Shown here: piece after piece, positions 206 through 16,631 of the stretch
Layout of the letters: each line of letters opens with the position of its first letter
How positions within the stretch are numbered: position 1 is the stretch's first letter
Source of the DNA: Klebsiella pneumoniae
GTDB lineage: Bacteria; Pseudomonadota; Gammaproteobacteria; Ga0077536
NCBI GenBank assembly: GCA_945876945.1
Contig: CAMCQE010000027.1
Location: 1 to 34,679, forward strand
Length of the DNA: 34,679 nucleotides
Reading direction: 5' to 3'
Notes under the pieces: model-generated
What the model saw: the letters and a program-made list of their open reading frames with translations, nothing else
What the model was told of the DNA's origin: nothing
Database searches by the model: none
Made by a program: the position numbers and the translations under genes

Positions 206-1315
206 ATGAGTTCACGCATTACCGGGCTAATCCTCGCCGGCGGTCAGGGCAGCCGGCTCGGCGGCCGCGATAAGGGGCTGGTCATGTTGGGGCAGGAGTC
301 GCTGGCGCGCAGGGTGGTGGCCCGGTTCGGCCCTCAGGTCGATCAACTGCTCATCAACGCCAATCGTCATGAAGACGCCTACGCGACGCTTGGCTTTCCG
401 GTCATCGGTGACCTGCGCAAAGATTTCCCGGGCCCCTTGGCCGGAATCGCCGCCGGCCTCGCCGCCACCGCCGACGGACTGCTGGCGATCGCGCCCTGCG
501 ATAGCCCTTTTCTACCCTTGGACCTGATCCCTCGCCTGCACGCAGCCTTGCTCGCCGAACAGGCCGAAATCGCCGTGGCCCGTGCTGGTGGTGAGATGCA
601 GCCGGTTTTCGCGCTAATCCGCACCGACCTGCACGCCGCCCTCACCCGCTTTATGGCCGGTGACGATCGGCGGATTGCGGCATGGTTCCGCCAACATCGC
701 CTGGCCGTGGTCGACTTTGACGACGAGCGAGCATTCGCCAATTTGAATACTGAAAGCGATTTCGAGGCTGCCAATGCGCGACTGGCACTCGAACGGTTTG
801 ACGGTGTGCTGGGGATCGCCGGCTATAGCGGCAGTGGTAAAACCACGCTGCTCACGCGCCTGCTGCCGGATCTCAATGCGGCCGGTCTGCGGGTCGCGGT
901 GCTGAAACACGCGCATCACCAGTTTGATATCGATTATCCGGGCAAGGACAGTTACGAAATCCGCCACGCCGGCGCCCAACGGGTGCTGGTGGCCTCCGCG
1001 CAGCGCTGGGCGCTGATCGCAGAACGCCGGGAGCAAGGCGACCCGCCGTTGCTCGATCTATTGCAGCGCCTGCGCGCACCCGACATCGATCTGATCCTGG
1101 TGGAAGGCTTTCGCCACGAACGCTTTCCCAAGCTCGAAGTGCATCGGCCGTCGCTGGGTCGTGAGCTGCTTTGTCTACAAGATGACTCGGTCATCGCGCT
1201 GGCCAGCGATGCGCCCCTCACGCTCCCGCGCGCGATGCCGCATTTCGCGCTGGACGACCTCTCCGCCATCACCCAATTCGTGCTGCAACGCGCGCGTCAT
1301 GGAGACCCCACATGA
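206..1315 (+). CDS. mobAB: MobA-MobB fusion, molybdenum cofactor guanylyltransferase with GTP-binding adaptor
   Basis: A 369-residue protein with two domains. Residues 1 to about 195 are MobA-like: the nucleotide-binding LAGGQGSRLGGRDKG lies near the N-terminus and DFPGPLAGIAAGL near residue 75. MobA attaches GMP to Mo-molybdopterin to make the guanine dinucleotide form. Residues from about 200 are MobB-like, with the P-loop GYSGSGKTTLL and the following LKHAHHQFDID. MobB is a GTP-binding partner of MobA, so the fusion ties them permanently together; such fusions occur in other proteobacteria. The stop overlaps the moeA start by four bases (ATGA), indicating translational coupling, and the gene probably shares a transcript with upstream moaA. 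There is no strong ribosome binding site before the ATG, but MobA homology starts right after it. Confidence 0.93.
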   Translation: MSSRITGLILAGGQGSRLGGRDKGLVMLGQESLARRVVARFGPQVDQLLINANRHEDAYATLGFPVIGDLRKDFPGPLAGIAAGLAATADGLLAIAPCDSPFLPLDLIPRLHAALLAEQAEIAVARAGGEMQPVFALIRTDLHAALTRFMAGDDRRIAAWFRQHRLAVVDFDDERAFANLNTESDFEAANARLALERFDGVLGIAGYSGSGKTTLLTRLLPDLNAAGLRVAVLKHAHHQFDIDYPGKDSYEIRHAGAQRVLVASAQRWALIAERREQGDPPLLDLLQRLRAPDIDLILVEGFRHERFPKLEVHRPSLGRELLCLQDDSVIALASDAPLTLPRAMPHFALDDLSAITQFVLQRARHGDPT

Positions 1316-2585: not shown

Positions 2586-3521
2586 TCACACTTCGAGCTG
2601 CATGCCGTCGTAGGCGACTTCCCAGCCGCCGGCGGTGACCTCGGCGCGCTCGGGGCTGTCCTCGAGCAACACGGGATTGGTGGTGTTGATGTGAATGAAC
2701 ACCTTGCGCGCGATTTCGAGCTCGCGCAGTAGCGCGATGCTGCCGCCCTCACCCGAAATGCTCAGATGTCCCATGCGCTGACCGGTTTTGGCCCCCACGC
2801 CATCGCGAATCATCTCGTCATCTACCCACAGGGTGCCGTCGAATAACACCAGCGCCGCGCCGCGGATGCGGGCTGCCAACTCGGGCGTCATGCGGGCGCA
2901 GGCCGGCAGATAAAAGAAGCAACGGCCGCTTTCGGTATCCCGCACTTCAAGCGCAATGGTGTCTTCGGTCACGGCGCCGATGTCGACGCCTTTGGCCGCG
3001 TCTTCCAGCCAGAGCGCCACTTTGCCGGGCACCGCGAACGGCGTGATGGAGAGCCCAAGCGGGCTGCCGTCGGCCGCCAGGGGCGCAAAGGCCTCGCCCA
3101 GCGTCATCGGCCGCCGCGTGACGAAGGCGGGATTGAGCACGTTAAAAATGGAATTGGCGGCGAGCACCTCGAGTACCCGCCCCGTCGCATAGAGATTGAA
3201 GGCCTGCGACTCGCGCAGATTGAGCAAACCGGTGACGTGGTCAACGTCGGCATTGGTCAGCATCACCGCCTGAATCGGACTCGCCCGCAGCGGGCAGTCT
3301 GCGGCCGGTTGCAGCGCCGGGTTGTCGTTGATTTGCTGGCGAAGGTCGGGCGATGCGTTGCAGATCAGCCAGCGCTCACCGTCGGCGCTGACGGCGATCG
3401 AAGACTGCGTGCGCGATTTCGCCTGCGCGTCGCCGGCGCGGGCCCGGCGGCTATTCGGATGATTGCAGTTCCACTGCGGATAACCGCCGCCGGCGGCGGA
3501 ACCCAGAACGCGAATGTGCAT
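2586..3521 (-). CDS. pqqB: PQQ biosynthesis protein PqqB (metallo-beta-lactamase fold)
   Basis: A 311-residue protein matching PqqB throughout: GSAAGGGYPQWNCN near the N-terminus, NADVDHVTGLLNLRE around residue 95, and LPACARMTPEL later. PqqB has a metallo-beta-lactamase fold and is thought to hydroxylate the tyrosine of the PqqA-derived Glu-Tyr intermediate. The cysteine-rich stretch after WNCN that many PqqB proteins carry is here CNHPNSRRARAGD, so only one cysteine remains. The gene starts 18 bases after moaE on the same strand and is probably cotranscribed with moaD and moaE, about 3 kb from the rest of the pqq genes. The start codon is ATG with only a weak GGAAG upstream. Confidence 0.95.
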   Translation of the reverse strand: MHIRVLGSAAGGGYPQWNCNHPNSRRARAGDAQAKSRTQSSIAVSADGERWLICNASPDLRQQINDNPALQPAADCPLRASPIQAVMLTNADVDHVTGLLNLRESQAFNLYATGRVLEVLAANSIFNVLNPAFVTRRPMTLGEAFAPLAADGSPLGLSITPFAVPGKVALWLEDAAKGVDIGAVTEDTIALEVRDTESGRCFFYLPACARMTPELAARIRGAALVLFDGTLWVDDEMIRDGVGAKTGQRMGHLSISGEGGSIALLRELEIARKVFIHINTTNPVLLEDSPERAEVTAGGWEVAYDGMQLEV

Positions 3522-3539: not shown

Positions 3540-3995
3540 TCAGGATTCTTGGCCGGTATAGCCGGCGGTATTGCCATTCACCCAGCGAGTGCCCTCGACG
3601 AGGCGCTCTTTTTTCCAGAACGGCGCGCGTGACTTGAGGTCTTCCATCAGCGCGCGGCAGGCTTCGAAGGCTTCGGCGCGATGCGCCGACCACACCGCCA
3701 CCAGCACGATGGGTTCGCCCGGTTCGATATCGCCGACGCGGTGAATCACCAGTGTCTCCAGCAGGGTCCAGCGCGCAGCGGTCTCGGCGCAAATGGCCTC
3801 TAAATGCTGCTCGGTCATGCCGGGATAGTGTTCCAGGGTCATGCCGCGTACGGCGTCGCCGTCATTGAAATCGCGCATGGTGCCGACAAACACGGCGGTG
3901 GCACCGAAGGCGCCCGCGCTCGCGAAATGCGCTGCCTGGTGCGCCAGCACTTCCGCGTAAGGGTCGAACGGCGCGGCGCGCACACTAACCGGCAT
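3540..3995 (-). CDS. moaE: Molybdopterin synthase catalytic subunit MoaE
   Basis: A 151-residue MoaE when started at the ATG at 3995 (MPVSVRAAPFDPY). The frame is open further upstream, but that extension overlaps moaD and shows no MoaE homology. MoaE uses sulfur carried by MoaD thiocarboxylate to make the dithiolene of molybdopterin. Family motifs visible are FVGTMRDFNDGD, LEHYPGM, HRVGDIEPGE and, near the C-terminus, KSRAPFWKKE, which contains the catalytic lysine region. The start lies 11 bases inside moaD, so the two subunits are translationally coupled. pqqB follows 18 bases downstream. Confidence 0.95.
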   Translation of the reverse strand: MPVSVRAAPFDPYAEVLAHQAAHFASAGAFGATAVFVGTMRDFNDGDAVRGMTLEHYPGMTEQHLEAICAETAARWTLLETLVIHRVGDIEPGEPIVLVAVWSAHRAEAFEACRALMEDLKSRAPFWKKERLVEGTRWVNGNTAGYTGQES

Positions 3996-4242
3996 GAGCA
4001 CCCCCGGTAACGGGCGGGAAAAACGCGATTTCATCGCCGGCGGCGACCGGCGTCCCGGCATCGCAATACGCCATGTTGCGGGCGCACAGCACACGCGGCG
4101 GCAAGGTCTCAAGGCCAGTGGCGGCGGCCCAGCAATCGATCACGCGCATCTCGCCGTTGAATGCCAGATTTCGCTCGCGCCAGCCGTGGGTTTCCGCAAG
4201 GCTCGCGAACAGTTTGAGAGTGACTGAGGATGAAAGGCTCAC
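3985..4242 (-). CDS. moaD: Molybdopterin synthase sulfur carrier subunit MoaD with a C-terminal tail
   Basis: A small beta-grasp protein of about 85 residues. VTLKLFASLAETHGW at the N-terminus and DEIAFFPPVTGG at the C-terminus are typical of MoaD, which carries thiocarboxylate sulfur on its terminal glycine for MoaE. The reading frame does not stop after the Gly-Gly; four more residues (AHAG) follow before TAG at 3985-3987. A blocked diglycine should prevent adenylylation by MoeB unless it is trimmed. I chose the GTG at 4242 (VSLSSSVTLK); a TTG at 4254 is the other option, and a GCAGG lies directly before that TTG. It diverges from moaC and overlaps moaE by 11 bases. Confidence 0.85.
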   Translation of the reverse strand: MSLSSSVTLKLFASLAETHGWRERNLAFNGEMRVIDCWAAATGLETLPPRVLCARNMAYCDAGTPVAAGDEIAFFPPVTGGAHAG

Positions 4243-6924: not shown

Positions 6925-7680
6925 GTGCCAGAGTACTCAATCCGCCGCCGCGCTACCGATGCTCCCGTCTGGTCGCGAGAGGAATTCGAGCGGCAGCTGC
7001 GCGGCAAAGAGCGCTACTACCATATCCATCACCCCTTCCACATTCAGATGAACGAAGGGGGTCTCAGCCGTGAAGCCGTGCAGGGCTGGGTGACTAATCG
7101 TTTCTATTACCAGCAGTGCATTCCTATCAAAGATGCCGCCGTGCTGGCCAACTGCGAGGACCGCGACAGCCGCCGTCTCTGGATCCAGCGCATTCTCGAC
7201 CACGACGGCCTGGCGGGGGATGAAGGCGGCATCGAAGCCTGGCTGCAGCTTGGCGAAGCGGTGGGTCTGGACCGCGCCTATCTTGAGAGCGGTGACGGTG
7301 TGCTTCCCGGCGTGCGCTTCGCCGTTGATGCCTACGTCAACTTCGCCCGCCGCGCCACGTTTGAAGAAGCCGCGTGCTCCTCGCTCACCGAACTCTTCGC
7401 GCCCACCATTCACCAGCGTCGGCTGGATAACTGGCCACAGATTTATCCCTGGATCGATGAGCGCGGTTATCGCTACTTCCGCAGACGTCTGAGCGAAGCG
7501 CGGCGTGACGTCGAACACGGGCTGACGGTCTCGCTGGAGTACTTCAAAACGCGCAGCGATCAGGACTACGCGCTCAGCATCCTGCAGTTCAAACTGAACG
7601 TGCTGTGGACGATGCTGGATGCCATGTGGATGGCGTACATTGAGCACAAGCCCCCTTTCTTCAGTTGCCCCCATGAGTGA
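6925..7680 (+). CDS. pqqC: Pyrroloquinoline-quinone synthase PqqC
   Basis: A 251-residue PqqC of normal length. PqqC is a cofactor-free oxidase that performs the last ring closure and eight-electron oxidation giving PQQ. Family motifs are [42 protein letters not shown] and [13 protein letters not shown]. The start is GTG (6925) with no clear ribosome binding site; the homology begins a few residues later and there is no better start. It overlaps pqqD by eight bases. Low initiation at this GTG, with the upstream hairpin, would keep enzyme levels below the PqqA peptide. Confidence 0.97.
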
Positions 7681-7960
7681 TTTCAGTCTCAGCCTCGACA
7701 CCGTCCCCCGCATCTCGCCGATGTTCCGCTTCCAGTGGGAAGAGGCGCAGGAAAGCCATGTGCTGCTCTACCCCGAGGGCATGGTCAAGCTGTCGGGCAG
7801 CGCCGGGGAAATTCTCGGTCTCGTCGATGGCAAAACCTCGGTGGGCGGCATCATCGACGCGCTGAAGCTCAAATTCCCGGGCGCCCCCCTGGACAACGAC
7901 GTCATCAACTTTCTGGAAACCGCATATGGACAGGGCTGGCTCCGCACCGTTAACGCCTAG
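7673..7960 (+). CDS. pqqD: PqqA-binding peptide chaperone PqqD
   Basis: A 95-residue PqqD when started at the ATG at 7673 ([16 protein letters not shown]). PqqD binds PqqA and presents it to the radical SAM enzyme PqqE. The pattern [26 protein letters not shown] (quoted in pieces: [24 protein letters not shown]) and the following [16 protein letters not shown] is diagnostic, as is the C-terminal [11 protein letters not shown]. It overlaps pqqC by eight bases and pqqE by 35 bases, so the three are translated as a unit. Confidence 0.96.
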
Positions 7961-9065
7961 CAAGCCGCTGTGGCTGCTGGCGGAACTGACCTATCGCTGT
8001 CCGCTGCAGTGTCCCTACTGTTCCAACCCGCTCGATATCGCCAAATACAAGGACGAACTCAGCACCGAACAGTGGATTAGCGTGCTGCAGCAGGCGCGCA
8101 AGATGGGCGCGGCGCAGCTGGGCTTCTCAGGCGGGGAGCCGCTGGTGCGGCAAGATTTAGAGATCTTGATCGCCGAGGCGCGCCGGCTGGGCTACTACAG
8201 CAATCTCATCACCTCCGGCGTCGGCATGAACGAAGATCGGGTCGCCGCTTTCAAGGAGGCGGGGCTCGATCACATTCAAATCAGCTTTCAGGCCAGCGAC
8301 GAGGAACTGAACAACTATCTCGGCGGCTCGGATTCCTTCCGCCATAAATACGAGATGGCACGGGTGGTCAAAAAACACGACTACCCGATGGTCCTCAACA
8401 TCGTGATCCACCGCCAGAACATCGACCAGATCGAAGACATCATCAAAATGACGATCGATCTGCAGGCGGATTACGTCGAGCTTGCCAGCACCCAGTATTA
8501 CGGCTGGTCGAAACTGAACGAGGCTGGGCTTTTGCCCACCCGCGAGCAACTCGCCCGCGCCGAACGCATCGCCCACGACTACCAGGACCGCATGAAGGGG
8601 AAAATGAAAATCCTCTACGTGGTGCCGGACTACTACGAAACGCGCCCCAAGGCCTGCATGAACGGCTGGGGCTCGATCTTCCTCACCATCGCGCCGGACG
8701 GCTCGGCGCTGCCCTGCCATGCCGCACGCCAGCTGCCCGGCATGAGCTTTCCCAACGTCAAAGACACTTCCATCGCAAGCATCTGGAACGAGTCGAACGC
8801 GTTTATGCGCTTTCGCGGCGATGACTGGATGCAGGAGCCCTGCAGGAGTTGCCCGGAGAAGGGCAAGGATTTCGGCGGCTGTCGGTGCCAGGCCTTCATG
8901 CTGACCGGAGACGCCACGAACGCCGATCCGGTGTGCGGCAAGTCAGACCATCACGCGGCGCTGGTGGCCGAAGTTAACCGCCTGACGGCGCTGTCGCTCG
9001 CAGAGGTGAAAGCCAAACCTCTCGTCTTCCGCAATCTCAAAAATTCGCGCGAACTGGTCCCCTAA
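7926..9065 (+). CDS. pqqE: PqqA peptide cyclase PqqE (radical SAM)
   Basis: A 379-residue radical SAM-SPASM enzyme. It joins the glutamate and tyrosine of PqqA by a carbon-carbon bond, the first committed step of PQQ synthesis. The radical SAM triad is CPLQCPYC near residue 21, and [13 protein letters not shown] is the SAM-contacting motif near residue 62. The C-terminal SPASM region has many cysteines, including [20 protein letters not shown], for two auxiliary iron-sulfur clusters. The ATG lies 35 bases inside pqqD; no later start precedes [13 protein letters not shown], so this overlap appears genuine. The gene ends the operon and converges with the CNB-EAL gene 21 bases away. Confidence 0.97.
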
Positions 9066-12694: not shown

Positions 12695-12946
12695 CTAGCC
12701 GCCCGCAACGGGTGGCCAGGCGGCAATCACATCCCCTTCAGAGAGGGCCAGCGTGCCGCGCTGGTCGGGCGCCACATACACGCCGTTCACCAATAGCAGA
12801 TGGGCCCGCGCATGCGGCACATGGCAGGTATCGAGCAGTTGGTGGGGCGTTGGCGCGAGAGGAAACTCCAGCGCAATCTGATTGTCGCGCGCGCTCGCGG
12901 GGAGATACTCCGCGAGCGACGCGTACAGCTTTAGCGTGAGGCGCAT
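12695..12946 (-). CDS. MoaD/ThiS-type sulfur carrier of the aldehyde oxidoreductase operon (AorD-like)
   Basis: An 83-residue beta-grasp protein starting MRLTLKLYASLAEYLP and ending VIAAWPPVAGG with a free terminal Gly-Gly. MoaD-like proteins pass sulfur to the pterin cofactor. It lies nine bases after the FAD subunit gene, matching the aorABCDE arrangement of Aromatoleum, where aorD encodes a MoaD/ThiS-like protein. It is the second MoaD in the window and, unlike the one at 3985-4242, has a canonical C-terminus. It may be specific for the tungsten cofactor or may replace the tailed MoaD. Confidence 0.88.
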   Translation of the reverse strand: MRLTLKLYASLAEYLPASARDNQIALEFPLAPTPHQLLDTCHVPHARAHLLLVNGVYVAPDQRGTLALSEGDVIAAWPPVAGG

Positions 12947-14297: not shown

Positions 14298-16148
14298 TCA
14301 CAGGCCGAGGCGCGAGAGCGTTTCTGCGGTAGGGACGCCATCGGTCGTCCAACCGCGAATTTCGTAGTAGTGGGGCAACATCTTGTGCAACTCGTTGACC
14401 TTGCCTTTGGCGGGGCCGGTCTTGGCGGCGTCCTTCAGCAGGCGCTTGGGCAGCGTGTCGTCCGCCGCCGTCAGGCCAGCGTCCAGATTGAACTGACGTT
14501 CGAGATTCCAGATGCGCTCGCCCGCTTCCAGCATTTTCTCGGTCGTCCAGTTCCCTTCGCAGGCGGCGTCCACCTGCGGGGCGATGTCTTCCAGCGTCCA
14601 GGCGAAAGTGGTGAACACGCACAGGCCGGAAGAGTCGACCGCCGCGGTCGCGTCCTGGAAGGCCTTCACCAGCTCGGGCTTGCCTTCGGTCTCCAACGGG
14701 TCGGTCTTCACCGGCACGCCAAGAATTTCGGAAGACACCGTATAGCTACGGAGATGGCAGGCGCCACGGTTAGAGGTGGCATAGGTCAGGCCCATGCCCT
14801 GAATGCCGCGCGGGTCGTAGGCCGGAAACTCCTGCCCCTTCACCGTCATGGACAGATCCGGATGACCGTATTTCTCGGTCAGGCGCTTCGAGCCCAGCGC
14901 GAGTTCGCGGCCAAAGCCTTCGCCTTTCGCGACCAGTTCCGCCGCCTTGGTCAAGGCCTCGGCAGAACCAAACTTCATTTCGATGCCGCCGGTGGTCTCG
15001 GTCGTGATCGCGCCGATTTCGTACAACTCCATCGCCGCCGCAACGGTCGCCCCGAAGGAAATGGGGTCGAAGCCGTCTTCGTTGCAGAGGAAGTTGGCGT
15101 AGGTCAGCGCGTCGAGATCGTCCACACCCGTGTCTGAACCCAGCGCCCAGGCCGCTTCGTACTCCAGGCCGCCATTGGCGCCCATGTATTCCGGCTTGTT
15201 GACGATGGTGTAGTGCTTGGGGTCGATGGTGGAGATGCGGCCGCAGGCGATAGTGCAGCTGAAGCACGCGGCATTGGTGGTGAGATTGGCTTTGCCGTCG
15301 CTCTCGCGCGGCACCAGCATCGCCTCCGCCCCGATGCGATTGGCCCCTTCAAACTGGACTTCTCGCATGTTGCGGGTGGGCATCGCGCCCACTTCGTTAA
15401 TGACGTTCATCAGCACCTGGGTGCCGAGCTTGGGCAGGCCTTCGCCGGTGACCGGGTTGCCCGCCAGCACGGCCTTGCCGGCCTGCGTCGCCTTGAAGAA
15501 GGCCTTGATGTCGCGCACGTTGCCAACACCCTTGGTGCCGCGAATGGCCACCGCCTTCAGATTCTTGGACGCCATCACGGTGCCCACGCCGGACCGGCCA
15601 GCGGCACGGTGCAGGTCGTTCATCACGCCCGAGTACAAGCAGCCCTGCTCGGCCGAACGGCCGACGCAGGCGATGCGCAGCTGCGGATCCTGATAGGTGG
15701 CGTGCAAAGCATGGTCAGTCGCCCAGGCCGAGGTGCCCCAGAGGTGGTCGGCGGGGCAGAGTTCGGCGTGTTCGTTTTCGATGTATAGGTAGACCGGCGT
15801 GGGCGACCGACCTTCAAAAATCACCATATCCCAGCCGGCCATTTTCATTTCATTACCGATGAACCCGCCCGAGTTGGAGCAGGCAATCGCGCCGGTCAGC
15901 GGGCTTTTGGTAATGACGGAGTAGCGACCGCCGGTGGAAGCCATCGTGCCCGTCAGCGGGCCGGTGGCCATGATGAGTTTATTGCCGGGCGAGAGCGCGT
16001 CCACTTTGGGATCGATCTCGGCGGCGAGGTATTTGGTGGCCAGACCGCGCTGACCGAGATACAGATTGGCCCACTCCATATTGAGTGGCTCCGGGGTGCA
16101 GGTGCCGTTCGTGAGGTCGACCCGCAGGATTTTTCTGGTCCATGCCAT
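14298..16148 (-). CDS. aorB: Tungsten-containing aldehyde ferredoxin oxidoreductase, large subunit (AorB-like)
   Basis: A 616-residue member of the aldehyde:ferredoxin oxidoreductase family, which oxidise aldehydes to carboxylic acids with a tungsten bis-pterin cofactor. RAAGRSGVGTVMASKNLKAV near residue 181 and DPRGIQGMGLTYATSNRGAC near residue 445 are the two pterin-binding motifs. Cys295, Cys298 and Cys302 (CFSCTIAC) with Cys510 are placed to bind one 4Fe-4S cluster, as in the archaeal enzyme. No signal peptide is present, so it is cytoplasmic. Between the polyferredoxin and FAD genes it forms an AorABC-type complex, which in Aromatoleum oxidises many aldehydes and reduces NAD. No tungstate transporter is visible in the window. 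Molybdenum cannot be excluded as the metal. Confidence 0.96.
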   Translation of the reverse strand: MAWTRKILRVDLTNGTCTPEPLNMEWANLYLGQRGLATKYLAAEIDPKVDALSPGNKLIMATGPLTGTMASTGGRYSVITKSPLTGAIACSNSGGFIGNEMKMAGWDMVIFEGRSPTPVYLYIENEHAELCPADHLWGTSAWATDHALHATYQDPQLRIACVGRSAEQGCLYSGVMNDLHRAAGRSGVGTVMASKNLKAVAIRGTKGVGNVRDIKAFFKATQAGKAVLAGNPVTGEGLPKLGTQVLMNVINEVGAMPTRNMREVQFEGANRIGAEAMLVPRESDGKANLTTNAACFSCTIACGRISTIDPKHYTIVNKPEYMGANGGLEYEAAWALGSDTGVDDLDALTYANFLCNEDGFDPISFGATVAAAMELYEIGAITTETTGGIEMKFGSAEALTKAAELVAKGEGFGRELALGSKRLTEKYGHPDLSMTVKGQEFPAYDPRGIQGMGLTYATSNRGACHLRSYTVSSEILGVPVKTDPLETEGKPELVKAFQDATAAVDSSGLCVFTTFAWTLEDIAPQVDAACEGNWTTEKMLEAGERIWNLERQFNLDAGLTAADDTLPKRLLKDAAKTGPAKGKVNELHKMLPHYYEIRGWTTDGVPTAETLSRLGL

Positions 16149-16163
16149 GCGTGCTGCCTCCGC

Positions 16164-16631
16164 TTAGCTCTTGGGGATCGACTGGCTGGCGTGCGCCTTC
16201 ATGCGGGCGAGGCCGGTGTGGTCGGCATCGACGTAGGTGATGGCGCCGGTCGGGCAAGCCGTGGCACAGGCCGGGTCGCCGCCGCACAAATCGCACTTGG
16301 CGACCTTGCCGGTATCGGAGTTGTAATTCACGGTGCCGAAGGGGCAGGCAATCGTGCAGACCTTGCAGCCGACGCAAACGTCTTCGATGACTTCTTTGGC
16401 ACCGGTTTGCGGGTTGATGACGATGGCCTCAACCGGGCAAGCATGGAGACACCAGGCTTCCGAACACTGCGAGCAGGTGTACGGTGCGAAGCGCCCTTCA
16501 TCGTGGAAGGTAAACACTTTGATACGGGACTTGCTGGGATTGAACACGGCTTCGTTCTCGTAAGAACAGGCCATTTCACATTGAAGGCAGCCGGTGCAAA
16601 GCTCGGCCTCTAGCTGTAACGCTTTGAGCAT
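16164..16631 (-). CDS. aorA: Polyferredoxin subunit of aldehyde oxidoreductase (AorA-like)
   Basis: A 155-residue ferredoxin with 16 cysteines in four sets: residues 12-15-18-22, 53-56-61-65, 86-89-92-96 and 113-116-122-126. This allows four 4Fe-4S clusters, as in the AorA subunit of the Aromatoleum enzyme and in HycB/DmsB-type electron transfer subunits. It would carry electrons from the tungsten subunit to the FAD subunit. A GGGAG lies eight bases before its ATG. It is the first gene of the minus-strand operon, so the promoter should be in 16632-16937. Confidence 0.95.
   Translation of the reverse strand: MLKALQLEAELCTGCLQCEMACSYENEAVFNPSKSRIKVFTFHDEGRFAPYTCSQCSEAWCLHACPVEAIVINPQTGAKEVIEDVCVGCKVCTIACPFGTVNYNSDTGKVAKCDLCGGDPACATACPTGAITYVDADHTGLARMKAHASQSIPKS

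What the first reader, a model, noticed from the sequence alone, without database searches (positions are those of the whole stretch)
3985..4242. MoaD whose terminal Gly-Gly is followed by AHAG
MoaD must end in a free Gly-Gly to be adenylylated and thiocarboxylated. Here the frame reads PPVTGG-AHAG before the stop. Either a protease trims it, as described for some tailed sulfur-carrier proteins, or this copy is inactive and the second MoaD at 12695-12946, with a normal end, serves molybdopterin synthase. The overlap with moaE (the tail encodes across the moaE start) may have created the extension by loss of an earlier stop.
Basis: partly seen in the sequence, partly recalled or inferred. Interest (0 to 1): 0.6.

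Follow-up and report, generated by a model that had tools for sequence, protein, structure and literature searches.

The report
Capped MoaD with matching JAMM protease
A bacterial sulfur-carrier protein needed for the molybdenum cofactor is made with four extra residues hiding its active end, and in related bacteria such caps occur almost only in genomes that also encode a JAMM protease able, by precedent, to cut them off, so the odd end is most likely a precursor form rather than a broken gene.

Summary
In detail: moaD (3985-4242, minus strand) reads ...FPPVTGG-AHAG-stop and overlaps the moaE start. It is not a sequencing error. All 8 genomes of the genus with the gene carry a cap after Gly-Gly ([A/S]HA[G/C/R], or TA), while other genera of the family stop right after Gly-Gly. 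The body is under purifying selection, so the gene is not decaying. The genome encodes a JAMM metalloprotease with an intact motif, overlapping moeB. Among 150 Gammaproteobacterial MoaDs, 18 (14 families) are capped: 15 of 18 have a strong JAMM gene against 49 of 132 uncapped (p=2e-4). ThiS behaves likewise: all 20 capped ThiS in the listed sample, including one ThiS-ThiG fusion, are in JAMM-positive genomes; 0 of 40 JAMM-negative genomes read are capped. Complete genomes exist whose only MoaD is capped. Best reading: MoaD is a precursor trimmed by the moeB-linked JAMM, and the cap is a by-product of the moaE overlap, tolerated because JAMM is present. New here: its recurrence in housekeeping MoaD and ThiS. 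The second MoaD is tungsten-AOR type, not a proven substitute. No cleavage was shown.

The parts
3985..4242 (-). moaD, sulfur-carrier subunit of MPT synthase, GTG start, ends GG-AHAG
   Evidence: PF02597 E 4.9e-11, TIGR01682 moaD 7.4e-13 (below its cut-off); dN/dS 0.05-0.33 in all genus pairs but one
4000..4005 (-). Gly-Gly codons GGG GGT; they also sit 4 nt upstream of the moaE ATG, where a Shine-Dalgarno sequence would be
   Evidence: same placement (2-7 nt) in most genomes examined; SD role is inference
3988..3999 (-). 4-residue cap AHAG after Gly-Gly
   Evidence: [AS]HA[GCR] in six congeners, TA in one; absent in the eight other genera of the family that were read
3985..3995 (-). 11-nt overlap of moaD tail and stop with the moaE start
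   Evidence: sequence
3540..3995 (-). moaE, catalytic subunit of MPT synthase; the only MoaE of the genome
4309..4788 (+). moaC
   Evidence: TIGR00581 204 bits
12695..12946 (-). second MoaD-like carrier with free Gly-Gly, near the tungsten aldehyde oxidoreductase genes; not thought to belong to the capped-MoaD pathway
   Evidence: (Ub-Mut7C 3.8e-8)
14298..16148 (-). AOR-family oxidoreductase near the second MoaD
   Evidence: NF007354 175 bits (below cut-off)

Best explanation
MoaD is made as a short precursor with a four-residue cap. The zinc metalloprotease JAMM encoded next to moeB (outside the window, G000:C45:18111-18530) cuts after Gly-Gly, so that MoeB can adenylylate the freed Gly and MoaD can be thiocarboxylated and serve MoaE. 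The cap itself probably has no function: it arose when the moaD stop was lost in the few bases between the Gly-Gly codons and the moaE start, and is tolerated because JAMM is there. Shown here: the cap, its genus-wide persistence, purifying selection, the JAMM gene with intact motif, and the cap-JAMM association. Inferred: cleavage, its site, the enzyme responsible, and neutrality of the cap.
For: Cap in all 8 genus genomes with moaD; dN/dS well below 1. JAMM in 9 of 9 genus genomes, directly after moeB in all; motif E..HxHx7SxxD intact in all 23 JAMM loci checked; NCBIfam best hit desampylase (HvJAMM1 family) 96.6 bits, PDB hits 2kks and PfJAMM1. Capped MoaD: JAMM (>=50 bits) in 15/18 vs 49/132 uncapped, p=2.3e-4, one genome per family median p 6e-4; in families f1, f64, f76, f78, f127 only the capped member has JAMM. 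Capped ThiS: 20/20 in JAMM+ genomes vs 39/130 of the rest, p=8e-10; 0 of 40 JAMM-negative genomes read are capped. In the window's own genome the other four carriers end in free GG. Precedents: MoaX cut between Gly82 and Ser83, needed for activity, not processed properly in E. coli (PMC4326299); DRJAMM cleaves MoaD-MoaE (PMC8832034); HvJAMM1 needed for SAMP1-MoaE to work (PMC4443979); capped PtmS2/PtmS3 with JAMM PtmS1 (PMC6006322).
Against: No cleavage was measured. jamm and moaD are not adjacent. One nearly complete genome (G381, 99%) has MoaD ending GG-AQ and no JAMM; G315 and G197 also lack it but are less complete (94%, 90%; congeners of G315 have it). JAMM is also present in genomes whose MoaD and ThiS are both uncapped (G397, G146, G149, G254), so it must have another role there. 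Shared ancestry inflates the raw p-values; JAMM presence rests on a bit-score cut.
Confidence: 0.8

Rival explanations
1. The cap is removed by a general carboxypeptidase or other protease, and the JAMM gene acts on something else (for example isopeptide conjugates of MoaD).
For: G381 has a two-residue cap without JAMM; JAMM occurs in genomes without capped MoaD or ThiS.
Against: Capped carriers are concentrated in JAMM+ genomes for two different carriers; general proteases are in all genomes and would not give that pattern; long ThiS caps and a ThiS-ThiG fusion occur only with JAMM.
Confidence: 0.13
2. This MoaD copy is inactive and the second MoaD (12695-12946) supplies MPT synthase.
For: The second MoaD has a normal end and an orthologue is present in six of the eight genus genomes searched.
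Against: Purifying selection on the capped copy; adjacency to the only moaE; the second copy sits near the AOR genes and scores weakly as MoaD; it was not found in G007 and G008, which have capped MoaD (both genomes incomplete); complete genome G111 and others have only a capped MoaD plus ThiS.
Confidence: 0.03
3. The cap is functional (a regulatory switch coupling Moco synthesis to JAMM level) rather than a tolerated by-product; removal by JAMM still occurs.
For: Caps persist in the whole genus; M. tuberculosis MoaX processing was suggested to be slow or regulated (PMC4326299).
Against: Cap residues vary (A/S; G/C/R) and follow what the moaE frame allows: the last residue changes with a silent third base of moaE codon 2; caps in other families are unrelated in sequence.
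Confidence: 0.04

Closest known systems
Capped sulfur carriers with JAMM: QbsE/QbsD, PtmS2-PtmS1 (PMC6006322)
   Same: One or a few residues after Gly-Gly; JAMM metalloprotease in the same genome; cap must be removed before activation
   Different: Those serve siderophores or natural products and PtmS1-PtmS2 are clustered; here it is the housekeeping MoaD, with the protease beside moeB at another locus
MoaX of M. tuberculosis and MoaD-MoaE of Deinococcus with DRJAMM (PMC4326299, PMC8832034)
   Same: Gly-Gly of MoaD is internal and is freed by cutting after the second Gly; DRJAMM is a JAMM enzyme
   Different: Those are in-frame MoaD-MoaE fusions; here moaE is in another frame and only four residues follow Gly-Gly
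HvJAMM1 with SAMP1 (PMC4443979)
   Same: Closest named family of the JAMM here (NF041370, 96.6 bits, below cut-off 130); SAMP1 is a MoaD-like carrier
   Different: HvJAMM1 also removes SAMP from lysine conjugates; no such conjugation was examined here
E. coli MoaD/MoaE (own knowledge; PDB 1fm0)
   Same: moaD-moaE order, Gly-Gly at residues 80-81
   Different: E. coli MoaD ends at Gly-Gly

Membership tests
MoaD (MPT synthase small subunit) | ThiS/MoaD beta-grasp profile match | tested here: met
   PF02597 43.5 bits over cut-off 22.5; TIGR01682 best NCBIfam hit, 49.1 bits, below its cut-off of 66.15
MoaD (MPT synthase small subunit) | adjacent to moaE and other Moco genes | tested here: met
   moaE overlaps; moaC and moeA nearby
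MoaD (MPT synthase small subunit) | free C-terminal Gly-Gly as encoded | tested here: not met
   AHAG follows; would be met after processing
Capped sulfur carrier matured by JAMM | extra residues after Gly-Gly, kept in relatives | tested here: met
Capped sulfur carrier matured by JAMM | JAMM protease with intact catalytic motif in the same genome | tested here: met
Capped sulfur carrier matured by JAMM | carrier and protease genes clustered (typical, not strictly defining: PtmS3 is capped as well) | tested here: not met
   JAMM is beside moeB on another contig
Capped sulfur carrier matured by JAMM | cleavage after Gly-Gly | not testable with these tools
   needs protein biochemistry
Desampylase (HvJAMM1 family, NF041370) | score over the curated cut-off | tested here: not met
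   96.6 bits against 130

The most novel reading that the evidence does not exclude
In Gammaproteobacteria a moeB-linked JAMM protease acts as a general maturase of housekeeping sulfur carriers. Its presence frees the stop codons of moaD and thiS from selection, so caps, and even a ThiS-ThiG fusion, arise repeatedly and then make the protease indispensable: a neutral ratchet.
Probability: 0.6. Interest if true: 0.66.

Novelty: new variant of a known kind. Interest (0 to 1): 0.57.

Why it matters
It gives a testable job to a widespread bacterial JAMM gene next to moeB: exposing Gly-Gly of housekeeping MoaD and ThiS. It warns that MoaD and ThiS with residues after Gly-Gly should not be annotated as broken, nor expressed in E. 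coli without the protease. It also offers a clean case of a protease that permits repeated loss of stop codons and then becomes essential, a parallel in cofactor biosynthesis to the maturation of ubiquitin precursors.

Tried and rejected
Sequencing error: rejected, same cap in independently assembled congeners. Pseudogene: rejected by dN/dS. Second MoaD as rescuer: not supported. Strict rule 'JAMM present means a capped carrier': rejected, several JAMM+ genomes have uncapped MoaD and ThiS. Under-counting of caps by the search tool: checked; 51 MoaDs listed as uncapped were read and all were uncapped; for ThiS four extra capped ones were found among those read. Carriers beside JAMM in some JAMM+ genomes: looked at, one readable case (G179) ends in free GG. 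Two family searches failed through a wrong coordinate and were repeated. Structure prediction was not run: motif and PDB sequence matches already settle the fold, and a complex cannot be modelled with the tool. A literature search for QbsE found nothing useful in the open library.

Full report
OBSERVATION. Window 3985-4242, minus strand, translates to a MoaD ending ...DEIAFFPPVTGG-AHAG-stop. Pfam ThiS and NCBIfam moaD models match up to the second Gly only. moaE (3540-3995, minus) starts at ATG 3993-3995, inside the tail: GGG GGT GCT C-ATG-CC GGT TAG, so the moaD stop is made of bases of moaE codons 3 and 4 read in another frame. The finding is correct as written.

NOT AN ERROR, NOT DECAY. In the same genus eight genomes have the gene (the window's own included), and all eight lack a stop after Gly-Gly: AHAG, AHAG, SHAG, SHAG, AHAC, SHAR, SHAR, and TA in the most distant one. 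Eight other genera of the family were read and all stop immediately, the closest with the layout GGN GGN TGA G ATG. This genus replaces that stop by a sense codon at the same spacing. Cap residue 1 is A or S; the last residue (G/C/R) changes with the silent third base of moaE codon 2. So the cap sequence follows moaE and seems unselected in itself. The MoaD body is under purifying selection: Nei-Gojobori dN/dS is 0.05-0.33 in all pairs but one very close pair (0.65).

THE PROTEASE. The genome has one Prok-JAB (JAMM) gene, at G000:C45:18111-18530, overlapping the end of moeB in the order hemA-prfA-prmC-moeB-JAMM (gene names other than moeB and JAMM by my reading of the ORFs). All nine genus genomes have it right after moeB. 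The metal and catalytic motif (E...HxHx7SxxD) is intact in all 23 loci examined. By sequence it is nearest the desampylase family (96.6 bits, below the curated cut-off of 130) and matches solved structures 2kks and Pyrococcus JAMM1. The genome has four other ThiS/MoaD-like carriers; all end in free Gly-Gly. The capped MoaD is thus the only carrier found there that needs trimming.

A CLASS-WIDE TEST. Among 370 Gammaproteobacterial genomes, 150 MoaD matches were listed; 18 in 14 families had no stop at Gly-Gly: for example GGAS, GGAA, GGAP, GGAW, GGGW, GGAL, GGAHDR, GGGHAC, GGRGRPR and longer ones. Most come from ATGA or GTGA overlaps with moaE, where the start codon lies 4-5 nt after the Gly-Gly codons. 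A JAMM gene of at least 50 bits is in 15 of 18 capped and 49 of 132 uncapped genomes (Fisher p = 2.3e-4; one genome per family, median p = 6e-4). In five families the capped member has JAMM and its sampled uncapped relatives do not. Reading 51 uncapped calls one by one found no missed cap. Exceptions: G381 (99% complete, GGAQ), G315 (94% complete, congeners have JAMM), G197 (90% complete, long cap).

THE SAME FOR ThiS. While checking other carriers, capped ThiS turned up. A class-wide ThiS search flagged 16 of 150 without a stop, all in JAMM+ genomes; reading sequences raised this to 20, still all JAMM+ (p = 8e-10), with caps from one to about 18 residues and one in-frame ThiS-ThiG fusion (G259). 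G261 (ThiS cap AT) and G080 (AMSCV), outside the listed 150, are also JAMM+. Forty JAMM-negative genomes were read and none has a capped ThiS. The genomes share ancestry, so the p-values are too small as they stand; the flagging itself was blind to JAMM.

THE REVERSE DOES NOT HOLD. Several JAMM+ genomes, some in a single contig (G397, G146, G149), have uncapped MoaD and ThiS. So JAMM is close to necessary for a cap, but caps are not necessary for JAMM. That fits a protease with an older role (deconjugation, or a past cap) that permits caps to arise.

THE SECOND MoaD. The carrier at 12695-12946 lies near an AOR-type tungsten oxidoreductase and a ferredoxin-like gene (14298-16631) and is closer to Ub-Mut7C than to MoaD. 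It was not found in G007 and G008 (both incomplete), which have capped MoaD. Only one MoaE exists per genome in the genus, beside the capped MoaD. In G111, a complete single-contig genome, the only carriers found are a capped MoaD and a capped ThiS. The rescue idea is therefore not supported.

HOW IT WORKS. MoeB adenylylates the free C-terminal Gly of MoaD (established biochemistry). A capped MoaD should not be able to enter that reaction. In M. tuberculosis MoaX, cutting between Gly82 and Ser83 is required and E. coli fails to process it correctly (PMC4326299). In Deinococcus, DRJAMM cuts MoaD-MoaE and leaves a C-terminal Gly (PMC8832034). In Haloferax, SAMP1-MoaE works only with jamm1 (PMC4443979). 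Capped carriers with one or two extra residues and a JAMM protease are known from natural-product pathways (PMC6006322). I infer the same for this MoaD, with JAMM made from the moeB locus.

WHY CAPS APPEAR. The Gly-Gly codons GGNGGN lie 2-7 nt upstream of the moaE start in most genomes, which is where a Shine-Dalgarno sequence sits. The stop of moaD must then fit into a handful of bases. Where a protease can remove extra residues, that stop can be lost. This is inference.

NOVELTY. An earlier genomic survey stated that classical thiamine and Moco operons do not contain a single JAB gene (PMC1779556). Here too the JAMM is outside the moa operon. The parts and chemistry are known; the repeated capping of housekeeping MoaD and ThiS and its tie to JAMM is not described in the papers I could search. 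I call it a new variant of a known kind.

Noticed in passing
G259:C1:3211600-3212900 (L257): ThiS continues in frame into a ThiG-like sequence after Gly-Gly-Gly (a ThiS-ThiG fusion) in a JAMM-positive genome; such a protein would need cutting to work.
   Followed up: partly
window 4000-4005 and moaD-moaE junctions in L002-L204: The codons for the Gly-Gly end of MoaD sit at Shine-Dalgarno distance from the moaE start in most genomes, so one stretch may serve as both protein end and ribosome-binding site.
   Followed up: partly
window 2586-3521 (-) and 6925-9065 (+): A pqqB-like gene lies apart from pqqC-, pqqD- and pqqE-like genes, with the Moco genes moaE-moaD-moaC between them.
   Followed up: no
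window 206-1315 (+): MobA and MobB appear fused in one ORF (nucleotidyltransferase part followed by a P-loop GTP-binding part).
   Followed up: no
G000:C8:23207-23404 and G000:C18:30059-30211 (L092, L093): Two further MoaD-like carriers with free Gly-Gly ends and unknown partners; the genome has five ThiS/MoaD-family carriers in all.
   Followed up: no
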